Below, one piece after another: positions 3,041 through 35,834 of a stretch of DNA of 64,000 bases. The notes below the pieces were generated by a model. That model was not told the DNA's origin and searched no databases. It saw only the letters and a program-made list of their open reading frames with translations. The position numbers and the translations under genes were made by a program. The stretch comes from Plumapathes pennacea (Eukaryota; Cnidaria; Anthozoa; Antipatharia; Myriopathidae), in the NCBI GenBank assembly GCA_964036295.1, contig OZ038472.1, forward strand, positions 6,966,001 to 7,030,000. Reading direction: 5' to 3'. Within the stretch, counting starts at the first letter, position 1. Each line of letters begins with the position of its first letter.

Positions 3041-5940
3041 GGTGTTTCCACAGTTCAATTACAGAGAAACAAGTCAAAATTGGCAAGGACCAAATCTGCA
3101 TGCTGTCCGCATCAGAGAGATGTCCGCTTTAGAGAGAGTTGACTGTATTGGAACCCTGCAACAAAACTTTCAGTCAAATAATCCCACTTGGCGTTCTTGT
3201 AATTACCTGGTACACATATAGTTTTTCCCCTTTTCGTCAAAGCTTGCGTCATCCTCTTTGGAGAGTAAATCAAGAAATTCCTACTCAAAATAGAACTCTC
3301 TACCGCACATAAGAATATGGTCAATACGAAGAGAGAGGTGGACATCATTCGGCCAACTAAAGACTTGATTATCTAGTGTTTTATTCAACGTGCGGATTGA
3401 AAACCCATACATTGTCTGCAAACTGTATGATGAATTCATAATGAACGGAATTGACATTGTCTCGAGCAAGTCAGGTTCTTTCAGCTGTAGAGCTTAAGAA
3501 CTAGAGAAACTTTACAGCTTTTATATATGCTTGGGTTCTTAACTTCTAGACAGCATTTTGTTCCAGCCTCGAGTTTCTGTATATTTAGCGCTCGTTTAGT
3601 TGAGATTATTCTGGAATAAGAAATTGTTCTAGAATATTCGGGATTATATACACATTCAAGTCTCATTTTTCAAACAAACCATTAATCTAACGAGCTTGCG
3701 GTCTGTGGCACAAAGGGCTTCGTGCTTTTTAAGCGTCGCATTTGGTCTTACGCATCGCATAATGGTGTTTTTACTGCACACAAGAGAAAAGTTGCACAAA
3801 GGGCACTGGATGTTTTGTCAAAGCCTAAACTGAGTGTTTTCTGTGAACAAACATATATTCATGGTAGCAAAAATATAGCTATGCATACTACACCAAAGTA
3901 TAACCGCTCATTTACCTTCATTCCCAGATTCAAAGCGATGTACGCATGTTGCTTTCCTTTGCGACGCCATGATTCGGCACATCGTTGAGCAGAGAATAAC
4001 GTGTGCAATTTCCTATTATGGAAAATAACACAATTTAGTAACATGGCAAATGGTTTGTACCCAGGAGTGTGAACAATAGGTTGGTTATGATCACTTTAAC
4101 GACCAGAGACTTAAATACCGCCATCTGACGAATCCTTTCACTTGACTCTGAAGATGACTTCCACTGAAGGCGTCGAAACGTCAGTCACCAACAACAGTCT
4201 TTCTGGAGACTACTCTAACCCGGATGATCATAACTAGCCTACAGTTTAGTAGGCTGGTCTTTATTCCTTCATTTCAAATGGTTGAAGCAAACCGCTGCAT
4301 TTAATGACTTAAATAAGTACTTTCTCTCTCCCACAATTTCTGTACGCAAGCGTGCTGAAAGTGCCTGACCGGAAAATCTGGTGAAGAGTCCGCACAAAGG
4401 TGCCATGCGTCGCTTCCGAAACCGCGGATCGTTCATGAGGTCACTTCCGTCCTTCAAAAATTTTAGTCGAATCGACCTACTTGGCGTACAATAATACCGC
4501 GTGGATTAATTTGACTGAAAATTTGATCCGCGGTGCTTCCAAAGTTCAGTTACAGAGAAACAAATAAAAATTGGCAAGGACCAAATCTGCATGCTGTCCG
4601 CTTTAGCTGGGTGTCTGCTTTAGAGAGAGTTGACTGTATTGGAACACTGTGACAAAACATTCGGTCGAATGATCCCACTTGGCGTTCTTCTAATTACCTG
4701 GTACACATATAGTTTTTCCCCTTTCGGTCAAAGCTTGCGTCAACCTTTATGGAGAGTAAATCAAGAAATTCCCACTCAAAATAGAACTCTTTAGCGCACA
4801 TAATATGGTTAATACGAAGAATATGGCCAACTAAAGACTCGATTATCTATGTTTTATTCACCGTGCGGTTTGAAAACCCATACATTGTCTGCAAACTGTC
4901 TCATTAATTCATAATGAGCAGAATTTGACATTGTCTTGAGCAAGTCAGGCTCTTTCAATTGTAAAGCTTAAGAACAAGAAACACTTTGCAGCTTTTATGT
5001 ATGCTTGGGTTCTTAACTTCTAGACAGCATTTTATTCCAGCCTCGGGTGTCTGGATATTTTAGCGCTTGTTTGGTTGGGGCTATTTCGGAATAAAAAATC
5101 GCTCCAGAATATTTGGGATTATATACACATCCAGATTTTCATTTCCCAAACGAACCATTGTTCTGACGAGCTTGCGGTCTGTGGCACAAAGGGCCTCGAG
5201 TTTCCTAAACGTCGAATTCAGTCACACGCATCGTACAATGGTGTTTTTACTGCACACAAGAGAAAAGCTGCACGAAAGGCAATGGATGTTGCGTCAAAGC
5301 CTAAACCGAGTCTTTTCCGTGACCAAACATATATCCACAGTAGCAAAAATATATAGCTCTGCATAATGCATCAAAATATAACCACTCATTTGCTTTCATT
5401 CTCAGATTCAAAACGGTGTAGGCATGTTGCTCTCCTTTGCGACGCCATCATCCGGCATCGTTGAGCTGAGAATAACGTGTGCTATTTCCCATTATGGAAA
5501 ATAACACAATTTAGTTATATGGCAAATGGTTTGAACCCAGGAGTGTGAACAGTAGGTTGGATTGGTTACGATCACTTCAACAGCCAGAGATACCGCCATC
5601 TGACGAATCCTTTCACTTGACTCTAAAGATGACTTCCGCTCTGGGAGTCGGAACGTCAGTCACCAACAAAAGTCTTCCCGGAGACCACTCTAACCCGGAC
5701 GATCATAACTAGCCTACAATTTAGTAAGTTGGTCTCTATTCCCTCATTTCGGCCAATTGGACCGTTTAAGCATAACCGCTGCATTTAATGGCGGAAATAA
5801 TTGCTCTCCCCCACAATTTCGGTACGGAAGCGTGGTGGAAGTGCCTGACCGGGATATTTGGTGACGAGTCCGCACGAAGGTGCCACGTGTTGCTCCGGAA
5901 ACCGCGGATACGTTCATGACGTCACTTCCGTCAGTCAACG
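3000..5940 (+). repeat. ~1.48-kb tandem duplication
   Basis: The block at about 3000-4460 is repeated at about 4490-5940. Paired markers include CCTGGTACACATATAG near 3207 and 4697, GACTTCC(A/G)CT near 4155 and 5630, and GTGCCTGACCGG near 4368 and 5845. Copies are diverged by substitutions and small indels. Both contain a stretch with ACGTCAGTCACCAACAA that looks like decayed transposon-derived sequence. No intact reading frame was found. Confidence 0.7.
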
Positions 5941-6142
5941 TTCGTCGCCATGGCTGTCTAACTTCTCATAATTGCTCGTGGCCGACGAGCTTAGGATTGC
6001 ACCGTGTGTCTTAATCGTCATGTTAGTTTTCTGGGTTACGAATCAGCACATGGTGATTGGTTTATATTATCACGTGATTTTAGATGACGTTTTGTGATCA
6101 CATGACTTGCCGGGCGAGCAGTTTCGCCATTTTGAAGAAGCG

Positions 6143-6880
6143 ATGTGGACGATTGATTTGTGTGTTGCGTGCCTTAGTTGGCTTTGTGGATTCTTCTATG
6201 GACCGCTCATCCTACTTACAAACGCATACGCCGGCTGCGGTAGACCCACACTAAATTTCATTGAGCGGTTTTGGCTTGGGTCGGTCCGTTCAGCCTCGAA
6301 AGCTTTGAAAAAAGCCACAAATGAAGCAATGAATATATCAATTAATATATCAATGAACATATTAATGTTCTTATCAATGAACTGCATAACTATGCACAAC
6401 TGTACAGAAATGTACGAAGATCCTGATATCCAGAATGTTGAGAACTGGAAGGAACAAGCTGAAAAAAAGCGCTCCAGATGCGAAGATCAGAACCCGAGTG
6501 ATATTAACGGCGAAGCAACTTCGACATTTCTTGGCAATCGCTTGATAGTGGAGTTTACGGAACTGTTTAGTGTGAAGGTGGACTTAAAGGTACTTTGTAT
6601 TCTTTTTCTTTGTATTATTCATGCTGATACAAGTAAAGCGTCAGAAAATCTGACTTTTGTTTGGAACCAAAGCTTTTATACTCTGCTGTGCATTTTTGTT
6701 GTTGCGACATTTTGGCTCGGTGTCATGAAGATCAAACAAGCAGCAGAACACGTTGCGTTATTATTTGAAAATTGGAACATGATTGAAGAAGAAGTGGTCG
6801 TTGGTAGATCTCGCTTTGAGCAGTTTTATTGTATTTCCAGTAATGTTTATGTGAAAGAAAATCGAAGTCGTCCAAGATGA
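6143..6880 (+). CDS. Putative multi-pass membrane protein encoded at the 5' end of Helentron 1
   Basis: I do not recognise a family. The frame from the ATG at 6143 gives 245 residues; it stays open upstream to about 6107, but there is no earlier ATG. Residues ~5-28 are hydrophobic (Leu/Cys/Trp-rich). Two further hydrophobic segments lie near residues 148-160 and 178-200, separated by a short loop with an NLT glycosylation-type site. It ends at a TGA, after which the same frame stays open to about 7040 and encodes a very basic stretch. That suggests the protein once ran on, via a frameshift, into the 2A-containing frame at 6978. If so, it would be the upstream product released by 2A. Membership of the element is inferred from position and strand only. 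Confidence 0.5.
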   Translation: MWTIDLCVACLSWLCGFFYGPLILLTNAYAGCGRPTLNFIERFWLGSVRSASKALKKATNEAMNISINISMNILMFLSMNCITMHNCTEMYEDPDIQNVENWKEQAEKKRSRCEDQNPSDINGEATSTFLGNRLIVEFTELFSVKVDLKVLCILFLCIIHADTSKASENLTFVWNQSFYTLLCIFVVATFWLGVMKIKQAAEHVALLFENWNMIEEEVVVGRSRFEQFYCISSNVYVKENRSRPR

Positions 6881-6977
6881 AGTCGTGCGCCAAGCCGAGT
6901 GCCTTTGAATGAACTTTCGCGCATTTTGAACAAGGACAGGAAAAGCAGGCGACTATTACGAGAATACATTTCAAAGA

Positions 6978-8354
6978 ATGTCCCAAAATCGTCAAAAGTT
7001 CATGATTATACGCGGGCTTATGTACTTCACAATGCTAATCCGTGAACGTGCACGTAAACAACATCGGAACAATAGAAAGCCACACAAATGTAAAGAGAAA
7101 ATTAGGATCGATAAACCATCGCTGCGAGAAAGCTATAAGTTCAAAAAGAAGATCGTCAAAAGTAATCGAGGTGCCAAGGTACGTTCGTATTTTAGAATGA
7201 CTTCAAAAACAGGCATTTCGAGACCAGCTGTGTTCAGATATCGAAACCACAGAAGGAATTACTATGCGTTTTCTCTGTCAAGGGATATAGAAAAAAATCC
7301 CGGTCCTTCAGTTGTTGATCCAAACAAAACGATCATTGCACCGTACAGTCAAGGTAATGCTACAATATTTGGAGATAATGCTTGGCGACAATGTGTAGCT
7401 ATGTCTCTAGCAGCTCTCATATTTAACCACACGAATTTTATTTGTTTATCAGAGGATTTAAGCGAAATTATGAATGCTGGGAACAATCTGTATTCCACTC
7501 TTTCTCAATCGTCTGAGGGCTATTTTTTACTGCTGACAGATCTACCTGGAATGGTCACAATGTATGAAACTCAGTATGAGCTGCAATACAGCGAAAGTTA
7601 CGTGGGTAATTTGTTTGGAACTTGCTTTCCCATTGAAGGCTTTGCTTACTGCACAACACTGACTGGGGCTTTTAATTCTTTGTTCAGACAGGACTTCAGG
7701 TGCTTTATTCTGACAATAGGCTGTAGTACTGTAGCTGTATTTTGTTTGCCAGGTGGCAGGTTCAAAGTATTTGATTCTCACAGTAGAGATAATTTTGGCA
7801 TGGAACATCCTGAAGGAAAATGTGTATTAATTGAAATCCGTTCAGTTGGTAATTTATTGGAATATTTTCAGACTTTATATGTACACATGCCTACCATTAC
7901 ATTTGAAATTAAAGGAGTACACATCTGTCTAACAGAAGATATACACCACAATAGTTGTGAAGAGCCCATAACTGTTCAACAAAGAAGTAATGCAATTATT
8001 TGCAAATGTAAGCAGTGCTGTGCAATTTCTTTCTATAGCATTTGTTTTTCTGTAATTAAGTCTTGCAGCTATTGGAATTCTGATACATTACATGCTGTAA
8101 TTGAAAAAGGTAACACATTTTACACGAACATGAATGTTGAGAAACACCTTGTAGTAAATGATTTACCAAATAAACTAGAGATATGTGCAGGTGCTGATGT
8201 TAATGTTGTCTTCACTGCTAAAAGCCAAGGAGTTCTGTCCAAGGACATAAGTTTGAGCAAGCAGAAGCTTCACCAACTTATTACACAAAACAATATGAAG
8301 AATACTGGCTTTCTATTATGGATTTCAACATACTGCCTAAGTTGTATTTTTTAA
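6978..8354 (+). CDS. Basic leader, 2A motif and C76-like cysteine peptidase (Helentron 1)
   Basis: 458 residues. Residues 20-100 are strongly basic. Residues 103-110 are the 2A motif DIEKNPGP. From residue ~120 the protein resembles the peptidase C76 family, the herpesvirus large-tegument deubiquitinase fold that is also found in animal Helitron proteins. Visible features are SQG (124-126), the presumptive catalytic Cys139 in RQCVAMSL, and VFDSHSRD (264-271) with Asp266/His268. The predicted role is deubiquitination or polyprotein processing by a protein separated from its leader at the 2A. The reading frame appears to shift near 8290: the other frame stays open to about 8390 and then, in a further frame, up to the foldback insertion at 8568, so the 3' end at 8354 is probably not original. 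Confidence 0.75.
   Translation: MSQNRQKFMIIRGLMYFTMLIRERARKQHRNNRKPHKCKEKIRIDKPSLRESYKFKKKIVKSNRGAKVRSYFRMTSKTGISRPAVFRYRNHRRNYYAFSLSRDIEKNPGPSVVDPNKTIIAPYSQGNATIFGDNAWRQCVAMSLAALIFNHTNFICLSEDLSEIMNAGNNLYSTLSQSSEGYFLLLTDLPGMVTMYETQYELQYSESYVGNLFGTCFPIEGFAYCTTLTGAFNSLFRQDFRCFILTIGCSTVAVFCLPGGRFKVFDSHSRDNFGMEHPEGKCVLIEIRSVGNLLEYFQTLYVHMPTITFEIKGVHICLTEDIHHNSCEEPITVQQRSNAIICKCKQCCAISFYSICFSVIKSCSYWNSDTLHAVIEKGNTFYTNMNVEKHLVVNDLPNKLEICAGADVNVVFTAKSQGVLSKDISLSKQKLHQLITQNNMKNTGFLLWISTYCLSCIF
7284..7307 (+). promoter_or_regulatory. 2A translational recoding (ribosome-skipping) site
   Basis: The codons at 7284-7307 encode DIEKNPGP, matching the 2A consensus D(V/I)ExNPGP exactly. 2A peptides make the ribosome skip the Gly-Pro bond, here between codons 7302-7304 and 7305-7307, giving two proteins from one frame. 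The motif sits between a basic leader and a peptidase domain, a boundary where separation would make sense. It is preceded by an aromatic/hydrophobic stretch (YYAFSLSR), as is common upstream of 2A. Activity is not shown by sequence alone. Confidence 0.8.
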
Positions 8355-8858
8355 CAACAAGCAAAAAGCAGAACAAAATTTATTGTATTAGCATTTGATC
8401 AAAGTGAATCACCACATTTATTTGAGAAAGTACATGATATAGATTCCCTCATTGACATAATATGCTCTACCGTTCTTGACAAGTTTGCGTGTGATAAAGT
8501 GCACTATCAAATACAGTTTCTTTCATGCTCATGTTGTTTGACAAAAAGTGAAAAGCACAAAATAACACATCCTCGGAGACCCAGGGGCAGATCGTGGAGC
8601 AGCGGTGAAAAGAACGGCGGGCAAAAAGCGGCGGAGGGGGAGGGGGAGGGGGGAGAAACGAAGAGGAGGAAAAGAGCCCCTGGGAACACAGTCTGTTCAG
8701 ACCAGTATTGAAGGCGTGAGACGAGCACGCCGCCGATTGGGCGAAAAAATTTATCAATTGTATTTTTTCGCCCAATCAGCGATTGTCGTCAAATGCCGCC
8801 TGTCAAAACTCCATCAAAAGATTAAGAGATTAAGCGCGTTTACGTTTCGTTCGGCAAG

Positions 8859-9260
8859 ATGGAAGAAGCTATTAAATTTTCTGTGTGGTTATTTCCAAAT
8901 GCCAAGGAGTTAAAAGCCGAGCAATTGATCGTGGAGAATGTTGTCAAGGGAAGAGATGTGTTTGGGGAGCTGCTAACGGGATTTGGCAAGAGTTTGACCT
9001 TTCAAGTTTTGCCAGTCGTTTCGAAAGCGATGAATACTGCGGGCCAGAACTTCCCCGCTTCTCCGCTGGTCGTTGTTCTGTCTCCGCTGTCGTCGATCAT
9101 ACAAGACCAGGTCGCATACCTTCGATCAATTAATTTCAAAGCTGCGTTTGTGGGGGAGAACGCAGACGAAGACCGACGTATCCTTGAAGGAAAAGGACGC
9201 TTCGACTTCTTGTACGGAAGTCCTGAAACGTTTGTCGGCAACCAAAAGTACCGTGAAATT
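8859..9260 (+). pseudogene. RecQ-like DNA helicase N-terminal fragment (left arm plus loop)
   Basis: About 134 codons from an ATG near 8859. They include a P-loop-like motif I (LLTGFGKSLTFQVLP, compare RecQ TGGGKSLCYQ), a motif Ia-like LSPLSSIIQDQV, and an LYGSPE segment resembling the RecQ region after motif Ib. The fragment ends where the right arm begins (9261), beyond which the frame reads inverted-arm sequence. It lacks the DEAH box, the rest of the helicase core and the RQC domain, so it cannot be a working helicase. It is either a captured host exon or cargo from an amplified transposon-borne RecQ-like gene; the sequence here cannot separate these. Confidence 0.75.
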
Positions 9261-9501
9261 ATGATCGACGACAGCGGAGACAGAACAACGACCAGCGGAG
9301 AAGCGGGAAGTTCTGGCCCGCAGCATTCATCGCTTTCGCAACGACTGGCAAAACTTGAAAGGTCAAACTCTTGCCAAATCCCGTTAGCAGCTCCCCAAAC
9401 ACATCTCTTCCCTTGACAACATTCTCCACGATCAATTGCTCGGCTTTCAACTCCTTGGCATTTGGAAATAACCACACAGAAAATTTAATAGCTTCTTCCA
9501 T
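9259..9501 (-). pseudogene. RecQ-like helicase fragment, inverted duplicate (right arm)
   Basis: The right arm of the foldback element repeats the first ~65 codons of the RecQ-like frame in the opposite orientation, with the same start and motif I (TGFGKSLTFQVLP). Only a handful of residues differ from the left copy (for example SKAMNTAG against AKAMNAAG), so the duplication is recent or has been homogenised. Not functional on its own. Confidence 0.75.
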
Positions 9502-9868
9502 CTTGCCGAACGAAACGTAAACGCGCTTAATCTCTTAATCTTTTGATGGAGTTTTGACAGGCGGCATTTGACGACAATCGCTGATTGGGCGAAAAAATAC
9601 AATTGATAAATTTTTTCGCCCAATCGGCGGCGTGCTCGTCTCACGCCTTCAATACTGGTCTGAACAGACTGTGTTCCCAGGGGCTCTTTTCCTCCTCTTC
9701 GTTTCTCCCCCCTCCCCCTCCCCCTCCGCCGCTTTTTGCCCGCCGTTCTTTTCACCGCTGCTCCACGATCTGCCCCTGGGTCTCCGAGGATGAAAATAAC
9801 AAGGAAACACATTTCTTCTAGAGGATATTCTAAAACGGAAAAGAGAACAAGAAAAAGAAAAATATAGA

Positions 9869-10324
9869 ATGATGGAACCTTCTAAAAAAAGATGCTTTGT
9901 GAATAATATGGTTGGGAAATATAGATCAATGAATCATGAACAAAAACAGGACCTTCTTGCTAAAAAAGCTGAAAAATACAAATCAATGGAATCTGAACAA
10001 AAAAGGGACCTTTTGTCTAAAAAAGTTGAAAAGTACAAGGCAATGGAACCTAAACAAAAGAAAGACCTTTTGTCTATAAATGTTGAGAAATACAAATCAA
10101 TGGAACCTAAACAAAAACAAGACTTTCTATTCAAAAAAGCAAAAAAGTACAGACTTGTGGAGTCTAACAAGAAAAGTGCACTTATTCACAATATGGCACA
10201 AAGATATCATAACATGGAACCATCAGCTAAAAGATATTGGCTTGAATGTAATAAAAGTAAATATCACAGCATGGATCAAGACAAAAAGGATATTGTACAT
10301 GCAAAAAAAAAGAGAAGCAAGTAA
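9869..10324 (+). CDS. Helentron 1: basic ~19-residue repeat region
   Basis: About seven tandem units of the form KYxSMExxQKxDLLxKKxE make a charged, probably helical region. Comparable Lys/Arg-rich repeat leaders precede the zinc region in other metazoan Helitron proteins. The same frame is open a little upstream of the ATG pair at 9869-9874 (to about 9824), so the original protein probably began further 5', before the foldback insertion. The frame ends at TAA 10322-10324, and coding continues in another frame from about 10314, so a small indel is likely here. Function unknown; possibly nucleic-acid or protein binding. Confidence 0.65.
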   Translation: MMEPSKKRCFVNNMVGKYRSMNHEQKQDLLAKKAEKYKSMESEQKRDLLSKKVEKYKAMEPKQKKDLLSINVEKYKSMEPKQKQDFLFKKAKKYRLVESNKKSALIHNMAQRYHNMEPSAKRYWLECNKSKYHSMDQDKKDIVHAKKKRSK

Positions 10325-10697
10325 AAAGAGAAGATCTAAAAGTATAATACATAATTTAGAGTACCATCTTGCAGAATTTAAAAACAAAATAAAAGATGGT
10401 CCTTACTTTATATGCTCTGTCTGTAATCGAATACTTTACAGAAAGTCAGTTGTAGAACTGAAGAGAACAAAGTACACTATGCAAGATTTTTTTACCGGTC
10501 AAAAATCATTTGATGAAAAGGAATATATTTGTAATACCTGCCACTCAAAGATTTTAAAAGGGAAAGTTCCATGCCAAGCTGTTAAAAACAACCTGTATTT
10601 AGATGAAGTCCCTCCAGAATTGACTCTGTTAGAGAAACTTGAACAGATACTCATAGCACAGCGTATCATTTTTGAAAAAATAGTGGTAAAAAAATAG
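10314..10697 (+). CDS. Helentron 1: zinc-binding DUF6570-like region
   Basis: The frame encodes a CSVC...CNTC pair of CxxC motifs ~50 residues apart, then a PPELTLLEKLEQILIAQRIIFEKI-type segment split here as PPELTLLEKLEQ and ILIAQRIIFEK. This is characteristic of the zinc region N-terminal to Rep in many animal Helitrons. It terminates at TAG 10695-10697 just after an A7 run, and the downstream Rep frame continues through the same run in another phase, so a 1-nt slippage indel explains the break. It probably binds DNA or structures the Rep N-terminus. Confidence 0.7.
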   Translation, partial: EASKKRRSKSIIHNLEYHLAEFKNKIKDGPYFICSVCNRILYRKSVVELKRTKYTMQDFFTGQKSFDEKEYICNTCHSKILKGKVPCQAVKNNLYLDEVPPELTLLEKLEQILIAQRIIFEKIVVKK

Positions 10698-12892
10698 TGC
10701 CTAAAGGACAACAAAGAAAGATTAAAGGTGCAATCTGCAATGTGCCTGTTGACTGTGACCAGACTTGTAGAATTTTACCCCGTCCTCCTGAAAGGTCAGG
10801 TATAATAATGTTGAAACTCAAAAGAAAGTTAGAATTTAGAGGTCATGTCTATTTTCAAGCTGTGCGTCCACAGATAATTTCTTCTGCCCTTACTTGGCTT
10901 AAAATGAATAATCCATTGTATACCAACATAGCAATTGACATTAAAAATATTGACAACAATTTGACAAGTCTAGCTGACCAAAATGCATCAGAAGATATGA
11001 ATTCAAGTTCACTCGATGAAGAAAGTTCCACTGCTGATAGAATATCTGATGATACTGATGTAATAAATGACAAATCAGAGGAAAATGATGACCCATTGAA
11101 TGAGCATAGAGCACCAACTAATGAAACCTGCTTACAGTCTGTAATTCCGGAGTACCCTGTAATTTTGGAGGAGCAAGATGAAAGCAATGTTTCATTAGGA
11201 AATGAAGTTTATTACAATGTTGCACCTGGAGAAAATAAGCATCCTGTGTCATTAATGACTGACAAGCAGTGTGAAGAACTGGCATTTCCAATATTATTTC
11301 CAAAAGGGAGATTTGGTTATCAAGCTCAACGGGAAATTAAATTGACACCAGTGAAATATTTTAATGCACGGTTATTACATTATAGTGGGCGATTTGCAAC
11401 AAATCCAGAGTACCTGTTTTATGCACAATTTGTGATGGAGCAAAAGAAAGTATCTGACAGTATTAACATCGCTCTCAAAAAGGTCCATGGGCAGTCTATG
11501 AAAGCCTCGGAATTGAGATCAAATGTACAAAACTTACAAAATCTTATTTCAAAAGATCAAGCATATTTGTTTCTGAGGCAAATTCCAGGCTCTTCACCAT
11601 ACTGGCAAAGATTTATGTATGAAGTTGTAGGTATGGTTCGCCAACTGGGAATTCCAACATGGTTCATGACATTATCATGTGCTGATCTTAGATGGCCTGA
11701 ACTATTTCAAATTATTGCAAGGACAAAAGGACAAAATATGATTGATGAACAAGTCCAAGCTTTGTCATACAATGAAAGATGTTCTATGTTGAATCTTAAT
11801 CCTGTTGTTGTAGCAAAACACTTCCAGTACAGAGTTGAAACATTCTTCAAGGAAGTCTTGCTTAACAGAGCCAACCCCATAGGGAAGATAATCTACTATG
11901 CTCTTCGAATTGAGTTCCAAATGAGGGGGTCTCCACACTTACATGCACTGATATGGACTTCAGATTGTCCAAAACTAACACATGACAGCAAAGAGGAATA
12001 TATTATAGAATATCTAGACAAGCATGTACAAGGTTGCCTTCCAAACAAAGAGAATGATCCCGACTTGTATGAATTAGTTAAAACTTATCAAAAACATACT
12101 CACTCTAAAACATGTAGAAAATATAGAAACATTCCATGCAGATTTAATTTTGGTCAGTTTTTCACAGAAAAAACAGTTGTAGCAGAACCTTTGTCAGATG
12201 ACCTTAGTGAAGTTGCAAAAGCTGAAGTCCTCTCTAAGCAAAGTGCAATTCTAACTTCTGTCAAAAAGAAAATTAATGAGGTCTTGGACCCAAGTAAATC
12301 AGATTATGATCCTAACCTTACTCAAAAACAAGTTTTGAACTTAGCAGGTATCTCTCAAAAAGATTATGAGTGGGCATTGTCAATTTCTACTGATTCTTAT
12401 CATGAGTTGCATCTCAAAAGACCAGTAGACAGTTGCTTCATTAACAATTATTTTATAGCAGGAGTAAAAGATTTTGCAGCAAATGTTGACTTACAACCTG
12501 TTTTTAACCACTACAAGTGCTTAACATATGTTTGTTCCTATTTTTCAAAAGATGAAACTGAGTGTTCACAGGCAATAACAAATGCAGCAAAAGAAGCAAG
12601 GAATTCAAATTTGACTGTTAAGGAAAGCTTGAGAAAAATAGGTGCTGCTTTTCTGTCTACTAGAGAAGTTAGTTCACAAGAATGTGTCTACAGATGCATG
12701 CCTGAACTTTGGTTGAGAAAAACATTTCCTGCAACAATTTTTGTTAGCACAAACTTACCAGAAAACAGATTGCGTTTAGCAAAAAGTCAAGATGAGCTTG
12801 ATGCATTAGATGAAGACAGTACAGATATTTTTAAATCTAATATCATTGAACGTTACACCTATTGGCCAAAAACAATTATTGCTGTTGATTGA
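10697..12892 (+). CDS. Helentron 1: Rep (HUH endonuclease) domain
   Basis: 731 residues counted from the first in-frame position after the break, so this is not a true start. The Helitron-like N domain is clear. Residues 321-333 read TWFMTLSCADLRW. The HUH metal-binding motif is GSPHLHALIW (His414/His416). A zinc-type pair lies at Cys473/Cys481. The catalytic tyrosine motif YVCSYFSK carries Tyr611 and Tyr615 with Lys618. Rep nicks and joins ssDNA during rolling-circle transposition. Unlike Helitrons A and B, the HUH motif is intact here. The frame stops at TGA 12890-12892 in the middle of the conserved region; the same frame stays open afterwards with matching sequence, so this is a point nonsense change. 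Confidence 0.85.
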   Translation: MPKGQQRKIKGAICNVPVDCDQTCRILPRPPERSGIIMLKLKRKLEFRGHVYFQAVRPQIISSALTWLKMNNPLYTNIAIDIKNIDNNLTSLADQNASEDMNSSSLDEESSTADRISDDTDVINDKSEENDDPLNEHRAPTNETCLQSVIPEYPVILEEQDESNVSLGNEVYYNVAPGENKHPVSLMTDKQCEELAFPILFPKGRFGYQAQREIKLTPVKYFNARLLHYSGRFATNPEYLFYAQFVMEQKKVSDSINIALKKVHGQSMKASELRSNVQNLQNLISKDQAYLFLRQIPGSSPYWQRFMYEVVGMVRQLGIPTWFMTLSCADLRWPELFQIIARTKGQNMIDEQVQALSYNERCSMLNLNPVVVAKHFQYRVETFFKEVLLNRANPIGKIIYYALRIEFQMRGSPHLHALIWTSDCPKLTHDSKEEYIIEYLDKHVQGCLPNKENDPDLYELVKTYQKHTHSKTCRKYRNIPCRFNFGQFFTEKTVVAEPLSDDLSEVAKAEVLSKQSAILTSVKKKINEVLDPSKSDYDPNLTQKQVLNLAGISQKDYEWALSISTDSYHELHLKRPVDSCFINNYFIAGVKDFAANVDLQPVFNHYKCLTYVCSYFSKDETECSQAITNAAKEARNSNLTVKESLRKIGAAFLSTREVSSQECVYRCMPELWLRKTFPATIFVSTNLPENRLRLAKSQDELDALDEDSTDIFKSNIIERYTYWPKTIIAVD

Positions 12893-13699
12893 CTTTGTTT
12901 AGCTGAGTTTGCAGCACATTACTACAAAGATTATTACAGTGAACATAATGAAACAAATGATGCTCAACCAGATGTCCTAACTGATGATGTGATTGAATCA
13001 CAGCACACACAGTCTTCTATTGATGGCACAGACTTTCGACTACTTCCTAATAAAATAAGACTGCTAATTACCAATGAAGTTATGAAATGCAGAAAAGTCA
13101 AGGCTGTTATACGGTTTCATACTCCAAGCAAAAGAAAGGAACCTGAAAAATATTTTCATCATCTACTTATGCTCTATTTTCCATGGCGAGAAGAAGGTGA
13201 CCTGCTTGGCACAGAGCAAACATACATGTCAAAGTTTTATGAGCCTGATGTGCAACCCATTGTTGAGCACAATCGAGAATTATTTCAACCCGATGCTGAA
13301 GCTGTAGAAGAGGGTTTAGAATTCTTAAGAAATAACCCAGGAGCTATACCTCACTCATATGACTCTATAAATGATCAAGAAAATGAAGATATCCGGTGTG
13401 AACCAGAAGACAACAATTCAATGTCATATGAGCAATCACCTGATGATCTTGCTCCAAATTCTGATCAGCCTCAGCAACCATCTTCAGGACTTATAGTTCA
13501 CAACCAGCCTTCAGATGTATCTGATGACTTGCTCTGTGAATCTGTTCGATCCTTGAACAACAAGCAACGCTATGCATACAATATTCTTCTTGCTTGGTGC
13601 AGAACTAAAATGAAGAATTTTAATAGCTTGAAACCAGAGAAAGTAGAACCAATATATCTGTTCATAACAGGAGGTGCTGGTGCAGGAAAAGCCACTTAA
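12893..13699 (+). CDS. Helentron 1: Rep-helicase linker and helicase motif I
   Basis: This continues the Rep frame after the TGA at 12890. Conserved Helitron linker features are visible: LLPNKIRLL, then a YFHHLLMLYFPWREE block typical of the region between Rep and helicase, then an acidic stretch. It ends in the Walker A segment GGAGAGK, which runs into a stop two codons later because of an apparent 1-nt loss in the A run at 13687-13690. The next frame resumes immediately with the rest of motif I. Confidence 0.8.
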   Translation, partial: LCLAEFAAHYYKDYYSEHNETNDAQPDVLTDDVIESQHTQSSIDGTDFRLLPNKIRLLITNEVMKCRKVKAVIRFHTPSKRKEPEKYFHHLLMLYFPWREEGDLLGTEQTYMSKFYEPDVQPIVEHNRELFQPDAEAVEEGLEFLRNNPGAIPHSYDSINDQENEDIRCEPEDNNSMSYEQSPDDLAPNSDQPQQPSSGLIVHNQPSDVSDDLLCESVRSLNNKQRYAYNILLAWCRTKMKNFNSLKPEKVEPIYLFITGGAGAGKAT

Positions 13700-14859
13700 T
13701 AAAAACCATTTACCATACTGCAGTGAAAACTTTCAAACATGCTCCTTTAAATCCAGAGCTACCCACAGTCCTATTAATGGCCCCCACTGGTGTTGCAGCT
13801 ATAAACATCAATGGCACTACAATTAACACTGCCTTATCAATCCCTAAAGAAACAGGAGATAGTGTACCTCCACTGTCAGACCAAAAGAAAACACAACTAC
13901 GAATGTCATTATCTGAACTCAAGTTGATAATTATAGATGAGATTTCAATGGTTTCAAACAGTGCATTACTCCATGTACACCAAAGACTACAGCATATTTT
14001 TGTCACTCCAAACTCTCAGTTGTTTGCTGGCATAAGCATAATTGCTGTTGGAGATTTGTACCAGCTCCCACCAATACGTAGGAAACCTGTTTTTTCATGT
14101 TTCAAAAATGATGCCTACAATTTATGTCATCCATGGGAAGCTTTCAAAATGATAGAGCTCACAGAAATAATGAGACAAAAAGATGACCACAAATTCGCTG
14201 AGCTTTTGAACAGAATCAGGACAGCATCACAAACTGAAGATGACATCAGATGTATTCAGACCACGTCCATAACCCCTTCAGATGAAAATTATCCATCAGA
14301 TGCACTCCATATATGGGCTGAAAATAATCCTGTTAATGTGTACAACAACCAATGTTTGCAACAGATATCCTCACCACTTTTTGTACTTAGAGCAATTGAT
14401 CAGTATCCACAGAATGTCACAAGACAAGACATTGAAAGAGTTCTTTCTAAAGGATGCTCTGAAACAGGTGGACTTGATTCTGAAATATTTATAAAAGAAA
14501 GTGCCAGAGTCATGCTTACAACAAACATTGATATTGCAGACAGACTTATAAATGGACAAATGGGCACTGTTGTTCACATTGCTACCAATCAAAACACCCA
14601 CAAACCAACTATTGTCTATATAAAATTTGATGACCATAATGCTGGTAACATGCTAATCAACAAATCGACAATCCCTTTGATCCGACAAACGAAAGTTGTC
14701 CCTATTATACCAGTCCTAGCTAAAATTAAAATAAGGTCAAACAAGGCTTCATCACCAGAAATACAAAGAGTACAGTTTCCACTAACACTAGCATGGGCAT
14801 GTACTGTTCACAAGGTCCAAGGATTAACACTCAATGATGTTGTAATCAGTTTAAATTAG
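13690..14859 (+). CDS. Helentron 1: PIF1-like helicase core
   Basis: SF1B helicase of the PIF1/Helitron type. Motif I completes at the start of this frame. Motif Ia is APTGVAA (codons near 13780). Walker B is IIIDEISMVS (13930-13960). Motif III is GDLYQLPP (14050-14073). Near the end is WACTVHKVQGLTL (motif V/VI region). The helicase would unwind the donor strand 5' to 3' during rolling-circle replication. It ends at TAG 14857-14859, and the last motif continues in another frame. Confidence 0.85.
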   Translation, partial: SHLIKTIYHTAVKTFKHAPLNPELPTVLLMAPTGVAAININGTTINTALSIPKETGDSVPPLSDQKKTQLRMSLSELKLIIIDEISMVSNSALLHVHQRLQHIFVTPNSQLFAGISIIAVGDLYQLPPIRRKPVFSCFKNDAYNLCHPWEAFKMIELTEIMRQKDDHKFAELLNRIRTASQTEDDIRCIQTTSITPSDENYPSDALHIWAENNPVNVYNNQCLQQISSPLFVLRAIDQYPQNVTRQDIERVLSKGCSETGGLDSEIFIKESARVMLTTNIDIADRLINGQMGTVVHIATNQNTHKPTIVYIKFDDHNAGNMLINKSTIPLIRQTKVVPIIPVLAKIKIRSNKASSPEIQRVQFPLTLAWACTVHKVQGLTLNDVVISLN

Positions 14860-15707
14860 AAAGACAAAGATCTTTCAATTACGGACAAATCTATGTGGCT
14901 CTTAGTCGTGCAACATCTTTTAAAGGCTTACACATCATTGGAAACATTGAAACCGAACAGATACGAGCAGATCCAAGATTACATGAAGAATATCAACGAC
15001 TAAGAACACTTCTACCTTTACGAATGGAACCAACACAAGATTTACTAAATGCATCTGGCAACAATGAACTATCTCTATGTCTATTAAATATCAGATCTCT
15101 AAGAAAACACAGCATTGACCTTAACTTTGACCACACCATTTTCAATTCCGATGTCCTTCTACTGACAGAAACTCATCTGCAACCACATGATTTGGACACT
15201 GAAATTAGAGATAACCTTCATCCTTTTCAACTGTACAGACAAGACAATCCTGATAAATATTCCAGTTTAGCTGTCTGTTCTAGAAACAGTGTTGAAACAA
15301 GCGAGCATCACTACTTTCATTCCCTGAATGCACTTAAATTGGTCATCACGTCTAGTAATTGTACAAAAAACAAAATATCATTAATTCTCCTTTATCGAAA
15401 ACATGGAACAAATATACAGCAATATATAAATAGCATTGAAAGTATTCTTAATCAACATCTTGTTGATATAATTCTAGGAGATTTTAACATTAACTACTTG
15501 AATGACACTGAAAATAGACCATTGAAAATTTTAATGAATTCTCTAAACTATGAACAAATTGTACAAAGTCCTACATTTGTTTCTGCTGGAAGTTTGCTAG
15601 ACCATGTTTACGTAAATCCAACAATGTTCAATATTGTCCAGAATTCCATAACGAGTGTTTACTATTCTGATCACGATGCTGTTACAATAACTGTAAAGCT
15701 AGCATAA
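14856..15707 (+). CDS. Helentron 1: helicase motif VI fused to AP-type endonuclease
   Basis: The frame opens with FNYGQIYVALSRATS, the terminal helicase motif. It then runs directly into an exonuclease-endonuclease-phosphatase domain: LLNIRSLR (Asn65, counting from codon 14895), LLTETHL (Glu92), GDFNIN (Asp196/Asn198), SLLDHVYV (235-240 region) and a terminal SDHDAV (Asp259-His260). These are the metal- and phosphate-binding positions of APE-type nucleases of non-LTR retrotransposons. The helicase-endonuclease fusion assigns the element to Helentrons. The end at 15707 looks natural, shortly after SDHD. Confidence 0.85.
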   Translation, partial: LERQRSFNYGQIYVALSRATSFKGLHIIGNIETEQIRADPRLHEEYQRLRTLLPLRMEPTQDLLNASGNNELSLCLLNIRSLRKHSIDLNFDHTIFNSDVLLLTETHLQPHDLDTEIRDNLHPFQLYRQDNPDKYSSLAVCSRNSVETSEHHYFHSLNALKLVITSSNCTKNKISLILLYRKHGTNIQQYINSIESILNQHLVDIILGDFNINYLNDTENRPLKILMNSLNYEQIVQSPTFVSAGSLLDHVYVNPTMFNIVQNSITSVYYSDHDAVTITVKLA

Positions 15708-17128
15708 CATCAGCTGCTATATGCATCCCTACACTGTACATTTTCTAAACAACAGATATATGTACATCAAGGAGTTCATTTAGGAAATCATTGAAATAAA
15801 TATATTATAATATTGTGTACACAACACTGCTCAGAGAAGTTACATTTGTGGACAGTTTATGTTTATGGACACAACTGGATAAACATTGCATGTTCAGCGG
15901 ATCCTACTTGCTAGCACCATGGTGCCAGCTTCCCACACTGACTTCCTGACAAAGGTAAATCACCTTCATTTTTAGGATAGTGGGGTGGGTATAGTATACA
16001 AACATTTCATTCAACTACATTAATGAATCGATCACTCTCTCCGCAGACCCTCTATTACTTGATGACTGACTCAAACTACAATAACATTGCCACTGTGGGA
16101 TCCATTACTTCCAGCCAGTGCAGTGTACCTACAATCAAGTGCTGCTGCCTGAATACAATAATTATTCTGCCTGCAGCTATGACTACACAAGAAATAATAT
16201 CCTGCTCACTTGGAAAAGTTTCATATCATTCATCAGAAGAAACTAAATGCTAGACTTGTATACACCTGCAGCCAAAGGCATTCATGGATATTTGTAGTCT
16301 CTGGTGGACACCAAAACTTATTCCTAATGCTGCATATCAATATACTTCATCAGAAGAAACTGGATGTATAGAACCTCAATGTGCAACCATCAAAGACATT
16401 CATGGAGCTATCACATTGGCCACTGTCAACTGGTGGACATGAAAAACTATTCTATAAACTTCATCAGAAAAAACTGATGCTGGACTTGTATGCACAGCCA
16501 AAGATATTTATAATATTGTGGTCACTCGGTGCATGGACATGAAAAACTATTCCTGCTGCACAATAAACTTGCTGTCCGAGACCATGGGCCACAAAGAGAA
16601 AGAACGCCCTTTGATTTTGAACAACATTTCAACCCAGCTATCATGTAAATCCAACGAACATGACATTCTTTATACTGAAGTTTCATGATTTGCTGCTATG
16701 AGAAATATAGGCTCACAGAGGTGCAAGTACAGTCTAAATTTTACTGTATTAATAGTACATCAGACACAGTTGTTTAATATCAATAAATTATACGGGTCGT
16801 TGTCACGTTATATGCTCGTGGTTTTAATTCATAATTGATAAATACAATAATTCCAAAAATTCTTCATGCACGATGGTGCAATTTTCCGTTGGCCAAGTAC
16901 CGATACAAAATCTTTTGTGGAAGCACATTATAGCTGTTAAATACAACTTATCAACCACTTAAAAATTCAAATCGTACCTTTTCTTTCCTGCCTCATTCTA
17001 CTAAGCGCTCCAACAAACACACAAAAACAATCCAAGTTTATAGCTCGCTTCTGGAACACGGATAGGCCTGGGGCGAGACCAGAAAAAGATTGATACCACA
17101 ACCTCGTCACCAGGAACATCTTGCACAT
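15708..17128. other. Noncoding, probably Helentron 1 3' region and flank
   Basis: No coding sequence recognised. A near-palindrome (GCACCATGGTGC) lies near 15916. Positions 16200-16560 contain three diverged repeats of a ~110-120-bp block marked by CATCAGAAGAAACT. The 3' end of Helentron 1 may be in here, but I could not fix it. Confidence 0.45.
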
Positions 17129-21839: not shown

Positions 21840-22617
21840 TCAAAGCTCAATATCAATGGCCACGTATTCAGTCTCTCCATGTTTTGCTGTGCGCTTTGTG
21901 AGCAGAAGTGACATGTCCCTATTTAGGAGTTTCTGAAGTGTTGCTTTCTTGTTTTCAGGAGACAGTGGGACAAATGTGCCAATGTTGATCAGAGAGGGAG
22001 CATTATCATGGTAAAGCTTTACTTGTTCATCTATGCCATGGAGTTTCAAAAGAAAGATGATCCTGTCTGATGCTGTAACTTCTTTGTTGCATTTGGGGCA
22101 AAAGGATTCTCGACCCATGGACACTACTCCAGAGCGACACATTTGGCATGCTGTGTAGGAGGTGTGGTCAATGTTGGTGATCTTTGTCACAAGCTTCACA
22201 GTTTGGCCAGGTTCTACAGCTGGCAGATTTTTTGGTTCAACAGTGGCATAGTCTTTATTTCCAAGGAGGCGTTTGGATGCTCTCAGGGTGACCAGGTCAT
22301 TTGGATCCACTTCAAAATCGACAGGAATGAGGCCTGCTTTTTGGAATCGTTGAGGAGTTTTCTTTACATTGAGGTTTTTGAATGTGTAAGTTTGTCCTGG
22401 TGCAAGTTTGTTGTTGAAGTATTTTGCAGTGTTATTCCAGGAAATCAGCCTTGCCCTTTGTGATCCATCCGTAACAAAAACTTCCAATAGTACTCCTCCT
22501 GAAATATCTCGAGTGCTTTTGTTTTCAATCAAGCATGTGATATTAACTGAAAGGTCATCTTCAGTTATTTCTGCCAGTGGGGTGGTATCTGGTGCAGATG
22601 TTGATGCAGATGGCACT
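21840..22617 (-). CDS. RPA-like single-stranded DNA-binding protein, terminal exon
   Basis: About 258 codons with an OB-fold core resembling RPA DNA-binding domain repeats (residues ~24-110, containing VTDGSQRARLISWN and LAPGQTYTFKNLNVKKT). A zinc ribbon CQMC...CPKC follows (Cys157/160/173/176), within a second OB-like region. There is no ATG: the frame opens at an apparent splice acceptor (TTTACAG then TGCC) at 22618, so this is a 3' exon. RPA coats ssDNA, and RPA-like genes are known Helitron cargo. It lies inside the Helitron A boundaries, same strand, downstream of the helicase, which supports a role protecting the displaced strand. The frame itself shows no lesion. Confidence 0.75.
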
Positions 22618-26162: not shown

Positions 26163-27134
26163 TTAATTGTAAGAAAAATCCCCAAATGCAATGATGTTTA
26201 CTCCACCAAAAAAGGAACCAACAGGTGCATCTTTGATTTCATTCAGCCTTTGGTTAATTTGGTTCAGTGTACGATAGCTGACCATGCTTATTTCATCTAC
26301 AATGACATTTTGCAAGTTTCTGTGCATTTTTCTAAGTTCATGTAGTTTTTCATTGGTGAGTGCTGTGCATTCAGTTGTAAACATGCCTGCACGTTCTACT
26401 GGAAGGTAAAATGCACGATGAAGAGTAATGCCACCAATATTATGTGCAGCAACACCAGTTGGAGCAGTTTTAATGACAGATGGCAGCAATGAATTGGCAT
26501 GTCTGAGCAAATATTCATAAATTACAGATATTAGGAAAGATTTACCAGTACCTCCTGCCCCTGTAACAAACATGAAGAGTGGTTTAGGCTTATCTAGAAT
26601 TTCTCCAGTTGCATTAAATGACATTTGATTTTTGATATGTGATACAACACAATCAAACACTTCTTTTTGATCTGTGTTAAGTTTTTTAAGTTTGTCTACA
26701 AATTCAGTATCTGTCATTGTGAATGTGTTCAGCATTTTCCATGCATAGTCATTATGAGAAGGCAAAAGATCTTTTAGGTCTTCTGTGGTCCTTGAATCAT
26801 CAGGGTTGTGTGTAGTATCTTCTGGTAGAAGTATGTTTTGCCAAAGTGACTCAGTTGAATCTATTTTACATTTTTCATTAGCTATTTGATGTGTTGTGTT
26901 AGGTAGTAGAGATGAAATGATGTCATCAGCTTTGTCAGCCATTAAGACTCTAAGTTGCTGGACTGCTCTTTCAACATCATCTGTAAACGACTTAAACATT
27001 GCAGAGCTCATTTCAAATTCTTTTGTTTTGTGAAAAAAAGCTTGCTGTGCAGATGTGAATGGCAGTAGTAGTTTGTTTTCATCACGCCATGGTAAAAACA
27101 AAAGGAGCATTTGGTAGTAAGTAGTCTTCACCAT
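26163..27134 (-). CDS. Helitron A PIF1-like helicase, N-terminal core
   Basis: 323 residues, starting in the Rep-helicase linker (TYYQMLLLFLPWRDE). Walker A is GAGGTGKS (192-199), motif Ia is TAPTGVAA (223-230) and Walker B is VIVDEISMVS (277-286). The frame breaks at AFGDF, at the start of motif III, by an apparent 1-nt insertion near 26190; the next phase continues with the family sequence. The start shown is only the first in-frame Met: conserved linker residues lie upstream in another phase. Confidence 0.8.
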   Translation of the reverse strand: MVKTTYYQMLLLFLPWRDENKLLLPFTSAQQAFFHKTKEFEMSSAMFKSFTDDVERAVQQLRVLMADKADDIISSLLPNTTHQIANEKCKIDSTESLWQNILLPEDTTHNPDDSRTTEDLKDLLPSHNDYAWKMLNTFTMTDTEFVDKLKKLNTDQKEVFDCVVSHIKNQMSFNATGEILDKPKPLFMFVTGAGGTGKSFLISVIYEYLLRHANSLLPSVIKTAPTGVAAHNIGGITLHRAFYLPVERAGMFTTECTALTNEKLHELRKMHRNLQNVIVDEISMVSYRTLNQINQRLNEIKDAPVGSFFGGVNIIAFGDFSYN

Positions 27135-27191
27135 CCTTGTATGGGGTGATGTATGGAAGTCTTAAGCAAGCAAGCTTTGTCCTTTTGTAAA

Positions 27192-27818
27192 TCATTTTCC
27201 CATTTGACAGCAGCCATGATGTTGCTTTTTTGGATGTAGAGCTTGTTTTAAAGTTATAGTAGCAAATGATGCAAGTGACATTGTTTCAAATTCTTTTGTT
27301 TCAGGTCGTTTTGGGTACATTTGAAGAATACCATCTATAAACACTTCTGTACTGTTTGGTGGAAGCTCATCTAGTTCACTTTTTGGTTTTAGTATTCTAA
27401 CTCGCTTAGGTGGTGGTTTACAATTGATAGATACTGTGTCTCGAGAAGAATCTACTAGTGGTAGACCAGTTATTCTGAAGACTGCTTCTTGTGCACTGAG
27501 TTCTCTTTCACTTAGGATTCGAGATCCAAGTTGAGAAAGTTGTTTACGGAAACTCATGCTTTGAGATTGTTTAAGTTGCTGAATTGTTTCATAGATTGCA
27601 AGCCTTAGTTGTGCTGGTTCTGATTTGCATATGTAAGAACATACATAAACAGCTATGCCATAGGTACAACCAACAAACTGAATATCCATGTTGGCCTTCC
27701 ATACCTTTAACACAGTTGGATTATAAGCATTGACACAAGTAGCATTAACACTTCTTTTTGTTTCATAGAAATTTGCAGAAGATGGGGGATGTTTGGTTTC
27801 ATACGAGTTTCTGAACAA
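27192..27818 (-). CDS. Helitron A Rep, tyrosine-motif segment
   Basis: 208 residues containing the catalytic pair YVCSYICK (Tyr58 and Tyr62 in this frame), followed by SMSFRKQLSQLGSRILSERELSAQEAVFR, typical of Helitron Rep C-termini (quoted in part as LSERELSAQEAVFR). The first ~20 residues overlap the preceding segment in another phase, marking a frameshift near 27780. This is the region that in Helitron B is lost behind the repeat element at 63489. Confidence 0.8.
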   Translation of the reverse strand: MFRNSYETKHPPSSANFYETKRSVNATCVNAYNPTVLKVWKANMDIQFVGCTYGIAVYVCSYICKSEPAQLRLAIYETIQQLKQSQSMSFRKQLSQLGSRILSERELSAQEAVFRITGLPLVDSSRDTVSINCKPPPKRVRILKPKSELDELPPNSTEVFIDGILQMYPKRPETKEFETMSLASFATITLKQALHPKKQHHGCCQMGK

Positions 27819-28235
27819 GGTTTTCTTGGGTAATTGAATCTACATAATTTTGGTCCTTTCTTGCAGGTTGTGGTGTGTCTGTGTATTTGAAGTTGTTCCA
27901 CAAGGTTTTTCAGTTCATTGTCATTGTCTGGTATTTCAGTACATACATACTTGTCAATGAATTCTGGTAGTTTTCTTCTTCCTTCAGCTTGTGCTATATT
28001 AGGTGCTTGTTTTATCCACAGAAAAATATGCATTCCCACTACCTCTGGCCTGAAACTCTACTCTAGTGAAATAGTCTGTAATTTCACCAAGTGGTTTTGA
28101 TTTACCTTTTAGAACATATCTGAAAAATGCTTTCCATTGTTTAACAAAGTGATGTGCTGTCATTACTGGGTTTGATCTTACAAAGTCATTGTTTGATGCA
28201 GAGGTCTTTACATCTCCTGTGTTATCTAATTTCAA
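27707..28235 (-). pseudogene. Helitron A Rep, HUH region with lesion
   Basis: Two overlapping phases are needed. One (28235-27999) carries VKQWKAFFRYVLKG and RVEFQARGSG; the other (28039-27707) carries MHIFLWIKQAPNIAQAEGRRK and a zinc-type TTCKKGPKLCRF. Where other Helitrons have SPHxH, both Helitron A and B read AGTGGGAATGCAT, which shifts frame and removes the first His of HUH. Nicking should be abolished. Confidence 0.8.
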
Positions 28236-28995
28236 GAATGCAAGAAGATCTTCCCAGTGACAGTCATTTGCACTGAGTGTTACAAACCATGTAGGTGGGC
28301 CAAGAGTTCTGAACTTTGCAAAAAGATCAAATAGAATATTTTTCCAGTAGGCACTTGTGCCTCATATCTGTTTCATGTAGGAAAATGAACTGTCGTTAAT
28401 GAAAGGTTCTACTTTACCACTTTGAAAGTTTGACGCTGTAACATTGCCATTATGATGGTTTGGAGACTTATCAAGTGGTGGAAAAGACAATCTTAATGCT
28501 ATGGATATTTGACTTTGGAGCTTGTGCTGTTCAAAGACATTTACTGCCCAAAAAAGATAACTTATATCTTTTCGCCAAATAGGATTTTCATTCAAAAGCT
28601 TGGCTTTAAAGTAAGTTTGTTCCGTAAGTTTTATAGGTCTTTCTGTTTTTAAGCCATTTTTTCCATATGGATAAAGCCATGGAAAAGAGAGTTCTTCAGT
28701 CTTTTCATGGTTGAATATGTTTACAGGTTTAGAAGTTGCTTTTGGTAATTGAACCGTAGGAGTTTTATTGATTTTGTAGTATTTGTTCTACATTTTTGTC
28801 TGGTAATACATAATCTTTTGGCACAAAAGATATCTCAGTATCAATATCTAAACTTGTGGAAACTGTATTTTCGTCAGACTGGCTAACTTGAGGGATTACC
28901 TTTATGTCACTGTAGAGTGGATTGTTCAATTTTAACCACTGCAATGCTTGTTCGATTTTTATTTTGTTAACCACATTATCAATTGATATTTCCAT
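28236..28995 (-). pseudogene. Helitron A Rep N-terminal region, broken
   Basis: Fragments in sequence order are ALQWLKLNNPLYSDI (28995-28765), an out-of-phase PTVQL...EHSFPWLYPYGK region, LSFPPLDKSPNHHNG (28595-28362) and GPPTWFVTLSANDCHWEDLL (upstream of 28235). Breaks seen are a 1-nt change at ILQNQ (28768) and a TGA at 28362-28364, where Helitron B has CGA. Motif order matches Helentron 1 and Helitron B. Confidence 0.75.
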
Positions 28996-35830: not shown

Positions 35831-35834
35831 TATG

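What the first reader, a model, noticed from the sequence alone, without database searches (positions are those of the whole stretch)
7284..7307. Virus-type 2A recoding motif inside a Helentron
The peptide DIEKNPGP is a perfect 2A consensus in the Helentron 1 frame, between a basic leader and a C76-like peptidase. 2A motifs are known in viruses and in some non-LTR retrotransposons. I am not aware of one described in a rolling-circle DNA transposon. It would let a single transcript make a leader/membrane product and the peptidase-Rep-helicase-nuclease product.
Basis: partly seen in the sequence, partly recalled or inferred. Interest (0 to 1): 0.92.

Follow-up and report, generated by a model that had tools for sequence, protein, structure and literature searches.

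The report
2A ribosome-skipping signal in coral Helentrons
A family of jumping DNA elements, found in corals, carries a conserved virus-type "2A" peptide that probably makes ribosomes release a leader protein and then go on to make the transposition protein; the copy in this window is broken, and the peptide's activity has not been tested.

Summary
The motif is real: DIEKNPGP at 7284-7307 (+), the only D(V/I)ExNPGP in six frames; chance expects 2.5e-5. It lies between a basic leader and a herpes-tegument-like deubiquitinase (VTD, C76), upstream of Rep, PIF1 helicase and APE endonuclease. It is conserved: of 226 listed relatives 190 have letters at the site; two lack anything comparable; of the other 188, 172 keep D(V/I)ExNPGP and 178 NPGP. 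In 34 representatives below 60% identity L, D, E, N, P, P are invariant, slightly above the catalytic triad. Three predicted proteins hold 2A and the Rep HUH motif together.

VTD-Helentrons are known (Erven 2022). I found no report of a 2A in a Helitron, but the key survey (Rao 2025) was not readable. This copy is decayed (in-frame stops at 6878 and 8352, frameshift near 7040, insertion). Most likely: a genuine, old StopGo element of a VTD-Helentron lineage known here from anthozoans. Activity is untested, and the R before the core in this copy is atypical.

The parts
6143..7304 (+). Leader coding region (first product): hydrophobic N terminus, GRPTL motif, hydrophobic segments, basic PSRxP region, ending at the G of NPG. 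Broken in this copy: in-frame TGA 6878-6880 and a frame change near 7039-7041.
   Evidence: tblastn with P0048 (85% and 89% identity) and P0077 (from its Met40); start and GRPTL positions
7230..7307 (+). Extended 2A region, 26 residues: conserved upstream stretch with L at p9, then the core
   Evidence: mean column conservation 0.26-0.28 for residues 61-80, 0.79 for residues 101-110
7284..7307 (+). 2A core DIEKNPGP; predicted break between G (ends 7304) and P (starts 7305)
7305..8015 (+). VTD / C76-like deubiquitinase domain; Cys codon 7392-7394, Asp 7773-7775, His 7779-7781
8016..8354 (+). Second VTD-like unit without the final D-x-H (my reading of the sequence; not separately tested), ending at an in-frame stop 8352-8354
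8598..9820 (+). Insertion that interrupts the element relative to unbroken relatives (edges approximate)
   Evidence: P0002 aligns to 8597 and resumes at 9821; P0152 aligns to 8612 and resumes at 9845
9821..10294 (+). Short-repeat region (DUF3106-like)
10557..10951 (+). DUF6570, split over two ORFs near 10694
   Evidence: Pfam E 2.2e-05 and 3.2e-11 on the two ORFs
11357..11953 (+). Helitron_like_N (Rep) domain with HUH motif GSPHLH at 11927
   Evidence: Pfam E 9.8e-36
12989..13699 (+). ORF ending in GGAGAGK, read as the start of the helicase (Walker-A-like, recalled); no Pfam family found
13723..14859 (+). PIF1-like helicase
   Evidence: Pfam PIF1 E 9e-22
14895..15707 (+). APE-type (Exo_endo_phos) endonuclease, the Helentron hallmark
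   Evidence: Pfam E 5.3e-09

Best explanation
The motif is a genuine 2A (StopGo, ribosome-skipping) element of a VTD-type Helentron family. In intact copies one transcript carries one long ORF: basic, sometimes membrane-type leader, then 2A, VTD deubiquitinase, second VTD-like unit, repeats, DUF6570, Rep, and (inferred from order) helicase and APE endonuclease. When the ribosome reaches NPG|P it releases the leader with the 2A tail and continues from Pro. The deubiquitinase-Rep protein then starts with Pro, with the catalytic Cys 27-33 residues after it. Where the leader has hydrophobic segments, skipping would free the DNA-processing protein from a membrane-bound leader so that it can reach the nucleus. 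Shown here: the motif, its position, its conservation in predicted proteins, the joint architecture in relatives, and decay of this copy. Inferred: the skipping reaction, product ratio and leader targeting.
For: Chance is excluded (expected 2.5e-5 per window). 172 of 188 homologous sites match D(V/I)ExNPGP and 178 keep NPGP; after clustering, strict matches are 127 of 140 (90%), 51 of 57 (70%), 31 of 34 (60%) and 13 of 15 (50%). In the 34, D, E, N, P, P and L at p9 are invariant and G is 97%, against 94% for the catalytic C and 96% for D and H. The free positions fit 2A: mostly I/V at p13, any residue at p15. DIETNPGP and DIEKNPGP are cores of tested viral 2As (EMCV HDIETNPGP ~91%, Providence virus GDIEKNPGP ~94%; PMC8623073 Table 1, passages). 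80 of 188 end in [ASC]G before the core, as the L-rich viral motifs 2 and 6 do (PMC12846837 section 10). AlphaFold puts a helix at 35-46 of P0002, ending just before its core, at modest confidence (pLDDT 61-63 there). P0153, P0156 and P0157 join 2A and Rep HUH motif in one predicted protein. The motif persists in P0145, 25% identical to P0002. The word-based candidate step did not need the motif: each of the 226 shares at least 3 non-motif 5-residue words with the queries of the search that first listed it.
Against: No translation data. The residue before the core (p11) is G in only 83 of 188 and is R in the window, while viral D-type 2As strongly prefer G there. 10 of 188 sites have lost NPGP; I read them as decaying copies, which was not tested, and two related ones (P0005, P0038) share NPVP. 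Two of 190 aligned sites carry nothing like it: P0148, not homologous there, and P0200, a distant VTD+OTU Helentron. Some upstream proteins inhibit the 2A reaction when they are translocated into the ER (PMC2978324, abstract). DNA of relatives was not obtained, so selection at the codon level is untested, and predicted proteins may join exons.
Confidence: 0.86

Rival explanations
1. The stretch is conserved as part of the folded deubiquitinase (an N-terminal arm of VTD) or as a docking motif, and no skipping occurs.
For: It lies at the border of VTD, 27-33 residues before the catalytic Cys in the 116 of 151 proteins in which this could be measured, and residues after it (TIxAPYSQ) are also conserved.
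Against: The VTD+OTU Helentron P0200 has a VTD domain and no such motif. The fixed and variable positions reproduce the 2A consensus.
Confidence: 0.07
2. A sub-reading of the best explanation: the element works mainly as a regulated stop or dual-targeting switch, so that few ribosomes make the Rep protein, or unskipped protein goes to the membrane.
For: 26 of 59 leaders of 180 residues or more have a hydrophobic segment. A 2A-like sequence that is both signal sequence and recoding element is known (PMC4981915, start of abstract, one passage). p11 varies, which may tune efficiency.
Against: 33 of the 59 leaders have no such segment; 7 of 18 leaders with the GRPxL/GRSxL motif have no internal one. 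In the longer relatives the core lies 119-433 residues in, not at the N terminus.
Confidence: 0.25
3. A proteolytic site: the VTD protease cuts after Gly of NPG.
For: Viral deubiquitinases often process polyproteins at bonds typically flanked by di-glycine (PMC9741609, passage).
Against: There is no di-glycine here, Pro follows the Gly, and D, E and N upstream are fixed as in 2A.
Confidence: 0.03
4. Chance match in a decayed transposon.
For: This copy is broken.
Against: Expected 2.5e-5 per window, and 172 of 188 relatives share it.
Confidence: 0.005

Closest known systems
2A/StopGo peptides of RNA viruses (FMDV, EMCV, Providence virus)
   Same: Core D(V/I)ExNPGP; L at p9 as in FMDV (FMDV letters recalled); G at p11 in 83 of 188; sits between products of one ORF
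   Different: Lies in a rolling-circle DNA transposon; upstream stretch YKxxNHRxNxCKxxL is its own (consensus); p11 often T, N or R
2A in non-LTR retrotransposons (L1Tc; APE-type elements, Odon 2013)
   Same: 2A used by a mobile element (existence and titles seen; the papers themselves not read)
   Different: Those are RNA-copying elements; here the downstream proteins are a deubiquitinase and HUH Rep
VTD-containing Helentrons (Erven et al. 2022, PMC9741609)
   Same: VTD deubiquitinase in the Helitron ORF with APE endonuclease; cnidarians among hosts; one has two VTDs (passages)
   Different: No NPGP, ribosome or skipping in the main text held (word search)
2A-like signal sequences (PMC4981915; sea urchin origin recalled)
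   Same: 2A together with secretory-type N-terminal sequence
   Different: There the 2A itself is N-terminal (start of abstract); here a longer leader precedes it

Membership tests
2A/StopGo element | Core (D/G/C/N)(V/I)ExNPGP | tested here: met
   Exact in the window; 172 of 188 relatives
2A/StopGo element | In frame between two coding regions | tested here: met
   P0152, P0153, P0155, P0156 and P0157 hold leader, 2A and downstream domains in one predicted protein; in the window copy the leader frame is broken
2A/StopGo element | Permissive upstream context of about 25-30 residues | tested here: inconclusive
   L at p9 in 186 of 188, [ASC]G in 80 of 188, R at p11 in the window; chimeric contexts are often inactive (PMC12846837, passage)
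2A/StopGo element | Two products from one ORF without a stop codon | not testable with these tools
   Needs a translation assay
Helentron | HUH Rep plus PIF1 helicase plus C-terminal APE endonuclease | tested here: met
   Pfam PF14214, PF05970, PF03372 in order on + strand; GSPHLH at 11927
Helentron | Characteristic termini | tested here: inconclusive
   No shared 11-mers, direct or inverted, between 5301-6250 and 15601-16900; ends not defined
VTD / peptidase C76 | Fold and Cys-Asp-His triad | tested here: met
   8ADD E 6.2e-11; Foldseek 8ADD E 1.5e-13 and 2J7Q E 3.6e-11 for relative P0002; C139, D266, H268 present in the window ORF. Activity not tested

The most novel reading that the evidence does not exclude
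An entire lineage of rolling-circle DNA transposons, at least in anthozoans, runs on a virus-type 2A: one transcript yields a leader (in part of the family membrane-type) and a Pro-started deubiquitinase-Rep-helicase-nuclease. It would be the first 2A described in a DNA transposon, kept as strictly as the deubiquitinase active site.
Probability: 0.5. Interest if true: 0.82.

Novelty: new variant of a known kind. Interest (0 to 1): 0.74.

Why it matters
2A recoding is described as largely confined to viruses and rare in cells (PMC12846837), with non-LTR retrotransposons and some NLR genes as the listed exceptions (PMC11512398, passage). A conserved 2A in rolling-circle DNA transposons would add a new class of user, give a large set of natural 2A variants with a distinct upstream stretch, and explain how one Helentron ORF yields both a leader and a nuclear protein. 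Helitron-type transposons have been proposed as the probable source of the herpesvirus tegument deubiquitinase (PMC9741609, passage), so how their polyprotein is split bears on that history.

Tried and rejected
Own-genome copies for DNA-level selection: the genome search was busy on all 11 tries, so no codon test was done. Viral contigs: three scans matched 11, 3 and 4 stretches by pattern, none confirmed as a relative; prokaryote contigs: 36 stretches, none confirmed. Element termini: shared 11-mer search empty. Considered and rejected: chance and protease site (no di-glycine). Considered but not claimed: P0200 carries FSGDLEIVDGQ near the aligned site, which might be a lost 2A or coincidence. 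Dropped before the count of 188: P0148 (not homologous at the site) and P0200 (no recognisable motif; aligned as DLEIVDGQ). If P0200 is counted, the figure is 172 of 189. Also not counted: 4 partial proteins (P0060, P0065, P0111, P0171) and 32 without letters at the site. The alignment used the first 900 residues of each protein; one search listed 120 of 225 hits and scored only the 7996 candidates sharing most words. The clusters took only proteins with letters in all eight core columns and at least 100 residues in the compared region. Earlier alignments gave 48 strict of 55 and 121 of 133, with one clearly misaligned row in each.

Full report
OBSERVATION. DIEKNPGP is present exactly where stated (7284-7307, +), in the ORF 6978-8354, and is the only 2A-core match in six frames of the window. 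A Markov model with the window's dinucleotides expects 2.5e-5 matches to D(V/I)ExNPGP.

SURROUNDINGS. Downstream on the same strand come a C76/VTD deubiquitinase, a short-repeat region, DUF6570, Helitron_like_N with the HUH motif GSPHLH, PIF1 helicase and an Exo_endo_phos endonuclease: the layout of a Helentron. The ORF 12989-13699 between Rep and helicase has no Pfam family. The peptidase assignment rests on a profile match to the crystal structure of a zebrafish Helitron VTD (8ADD, E 6.2e-11), weaker matches to herpesvirus tegument deneddylases (E 0.0013 to 0.86), and a predicted structure of relative P0002 that matches 8ADD (E 1.5e-13) and M48 (E 3.6e-11). Pfam alone does not call it on the window ORF. 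Cys, Asp and His of the triad are present.

THIS COPY IS DECAYED. Against P0048 (85-89% identical) the leader has an in-frame TGA at 6878-6880 and a frame change near 7040. There is an in-frame TAA at 8352-8354 and an insertion of about 1.2 kb after about 8597, and the Rep and helicase regions are split over several ORFs. The finding therefore concerns the family, not a working copy here.

CONSERVATION. Three protein searches gave 226 distinct relatives (65; one listed; 120 of 225 listed). In one alignment, 190 of 226 have letters in all eight columns, 4 are partial and 32 have none. Two of the 190 were set aside: P0148 is not homologous there, and P0200 has no recognisable motif. Of the remaining 188, 172 match D(V/I)ExNPGP and 178 keep NPGP. 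The 16 others differ by one residue each: NPVP three times; NPDP, NPRP, NPAP, NPSP, NPGL, NPGA and NSGP once each; and six with NPGP but a changed D/I/E part. I read these as decaying copies; that was not tested, and P0005 and P0038, which are alike, share NPVP. Strict matches after clustering: 127 of 140 (90%), 51 of 57 (70%), 31 of 34 (60%), 13 of 15 (50%). Among the 34, L at p9 and D, E, N, P, P are invariant and G is 97%, while the catalytic Cys is 94% and Asp and His are 96% (28 of the 34 have letters there). Position p13 is mostly I or V and p15 varies, as in viral 2A. Mean conservation is 0.26-0.28 for residues 61-80 and 0.79 for residues 101-110. The candidate step of the searches uses shared 5-residue words, which could favour motif carriers; each of the 226 shares at least 3 words outside the motif with the queries of the search that first listed it, though which 100 words were used is not known. 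P0145, 25% identical to P0002, still reads LLLLSNDIETNPGP; what kind of element it belongs to was not established.

ARCHITECTURE IN RELATIVES. P0152, P0153, P0155, P0156 and P0157 are single predicted proteins of 1399-1692 residues with the 2A starting at residues 119-433. P0153, P0156 and P0157 also hold the Rep HUH motif. Whether any was joined from exons is not known. P0156 matches the window Rep at 70% identity and the window 2A-VTD region at 39%. A protein that joins 2A with helicase and endonuclease was not seen; such long proteins were outside the search range, so that step is inferred from order in the window. The organisms named in the listings are four corals: Paramuricea clavata, Oculina patagonica, Desmophyllum pertusum, and Acropora digitifera, whose protein P0159 does not reach the site. 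Most sources are unnamed, so the host range is open; that the window is anthozoan is inferred.

LEADER. Of 59 leaders of at least 180 residues among the 226, 53 hold a PSR(I/V/L) motif, all 59 have net positive charge and 26 have a hydrophobic 19-residue stretch (on the 151 proteins held the figures are 29, 33 and 13 of 33). Of 18 proteins with GRPxL or GRSxL, 11 have hydrophobic stretches after it and 7 do not. So a membrane-type leader is not universal. The window's start ATG at 6143 coincides with Met40 of P0077.

MECHANISM. The nascent peptide would halt the ribosome at NPG|P, release the leader and continue with Pro. The deubiquitinase then has its catalytic Cys 27-33 residues after that Pro (measured in 116 of 151 proteins). 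Two published facts temper this: viral D-type 2As prefer G just before the core (PMC12846837 section 10), yet only 83 of 188 here have it and the window has R; and some upstream proteins inhibit 2A when translocated into the ER (PMC2978324, abstract). In favour, EMCV (HDIETNPGP, ~91%) and Providence virus (GDIEKNPGP, ~94%) use the same cores (PMC8623073, Table 1 passages); EMCV's H shows that G before the core is not obligatory.

NOVELTY. Erven et al. 2022 describe VTD-Helentrons, including cnidarians; a word search of the held main text finds no NPGP, ribosome or skipping (passages). A 2024 review lists 2A outside viruses in non-LTR retrotransposons and NLR proteins (passage). In the open-licence library held, no paper has Helitron with 2A-like or with ribosome skipping; two have Helitron with 2A peptide, on other subjects by title and abstract; of 284 with Helentron or NPGP, none of the 40 listed, ranked by number of terms, has both; and the 17 listed for 2A-like sequences, transpos and NPGP show none on DNA transposons by title. 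Rao et al. 2025, which searched cellular proteomes for 2A by HMM (known here only from PMC12846837), could not be read and may already contain these proteins. Hence: a known device in a new kind of carrier.

Noticed in passing
window 26163-28745 and 35826-36863, minus strand: A second Helentron-like element (Rep/helicase pieces match P0156 and P0200) and an ORF that reads like an OTU protease (recalled, not tested); no 2A core there.
   Followed up: partly
window 61734-63429, plus strand: A third Helitron-type stretch (DUF6570/Rep matches), without a 2A core.
   Followed up: partly
window 8598-9820: Insertion inside the element; ORF 8859-9416 looks RecQ-helicase-like (recalled, not tested), and the same words appear on both strands, suggesting an inverted repeat.
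   Followed up: no
window 29270-33307, minus strand: Two long ORFs that read as gag and pol of an LTR retrotransposon (recalled, not tested).
   Followed up: no
window 50283-51170, minus strand: ORF that reads as a LINE endonuclease/RT fragment (recalled, not tested).
   Followed up: no
window 21840-22616, minus strand: 258-aa ORF that may be a single-strand-binding-like protein (impression only).
   Followed up: no
protein P0102 (source ncbi): Holds two NPGP motifs in one predicted protein (INIEINPGP and VDIEVNPGP), apparently a composite of two copies.
   Followed up: no
protein P0200: VTD+OTU Helentron of 1960 aa without 2A, but with FSGDLEIVDGQ just before VTD; may be a lost 2A or coincidence.
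   Followed up: partly
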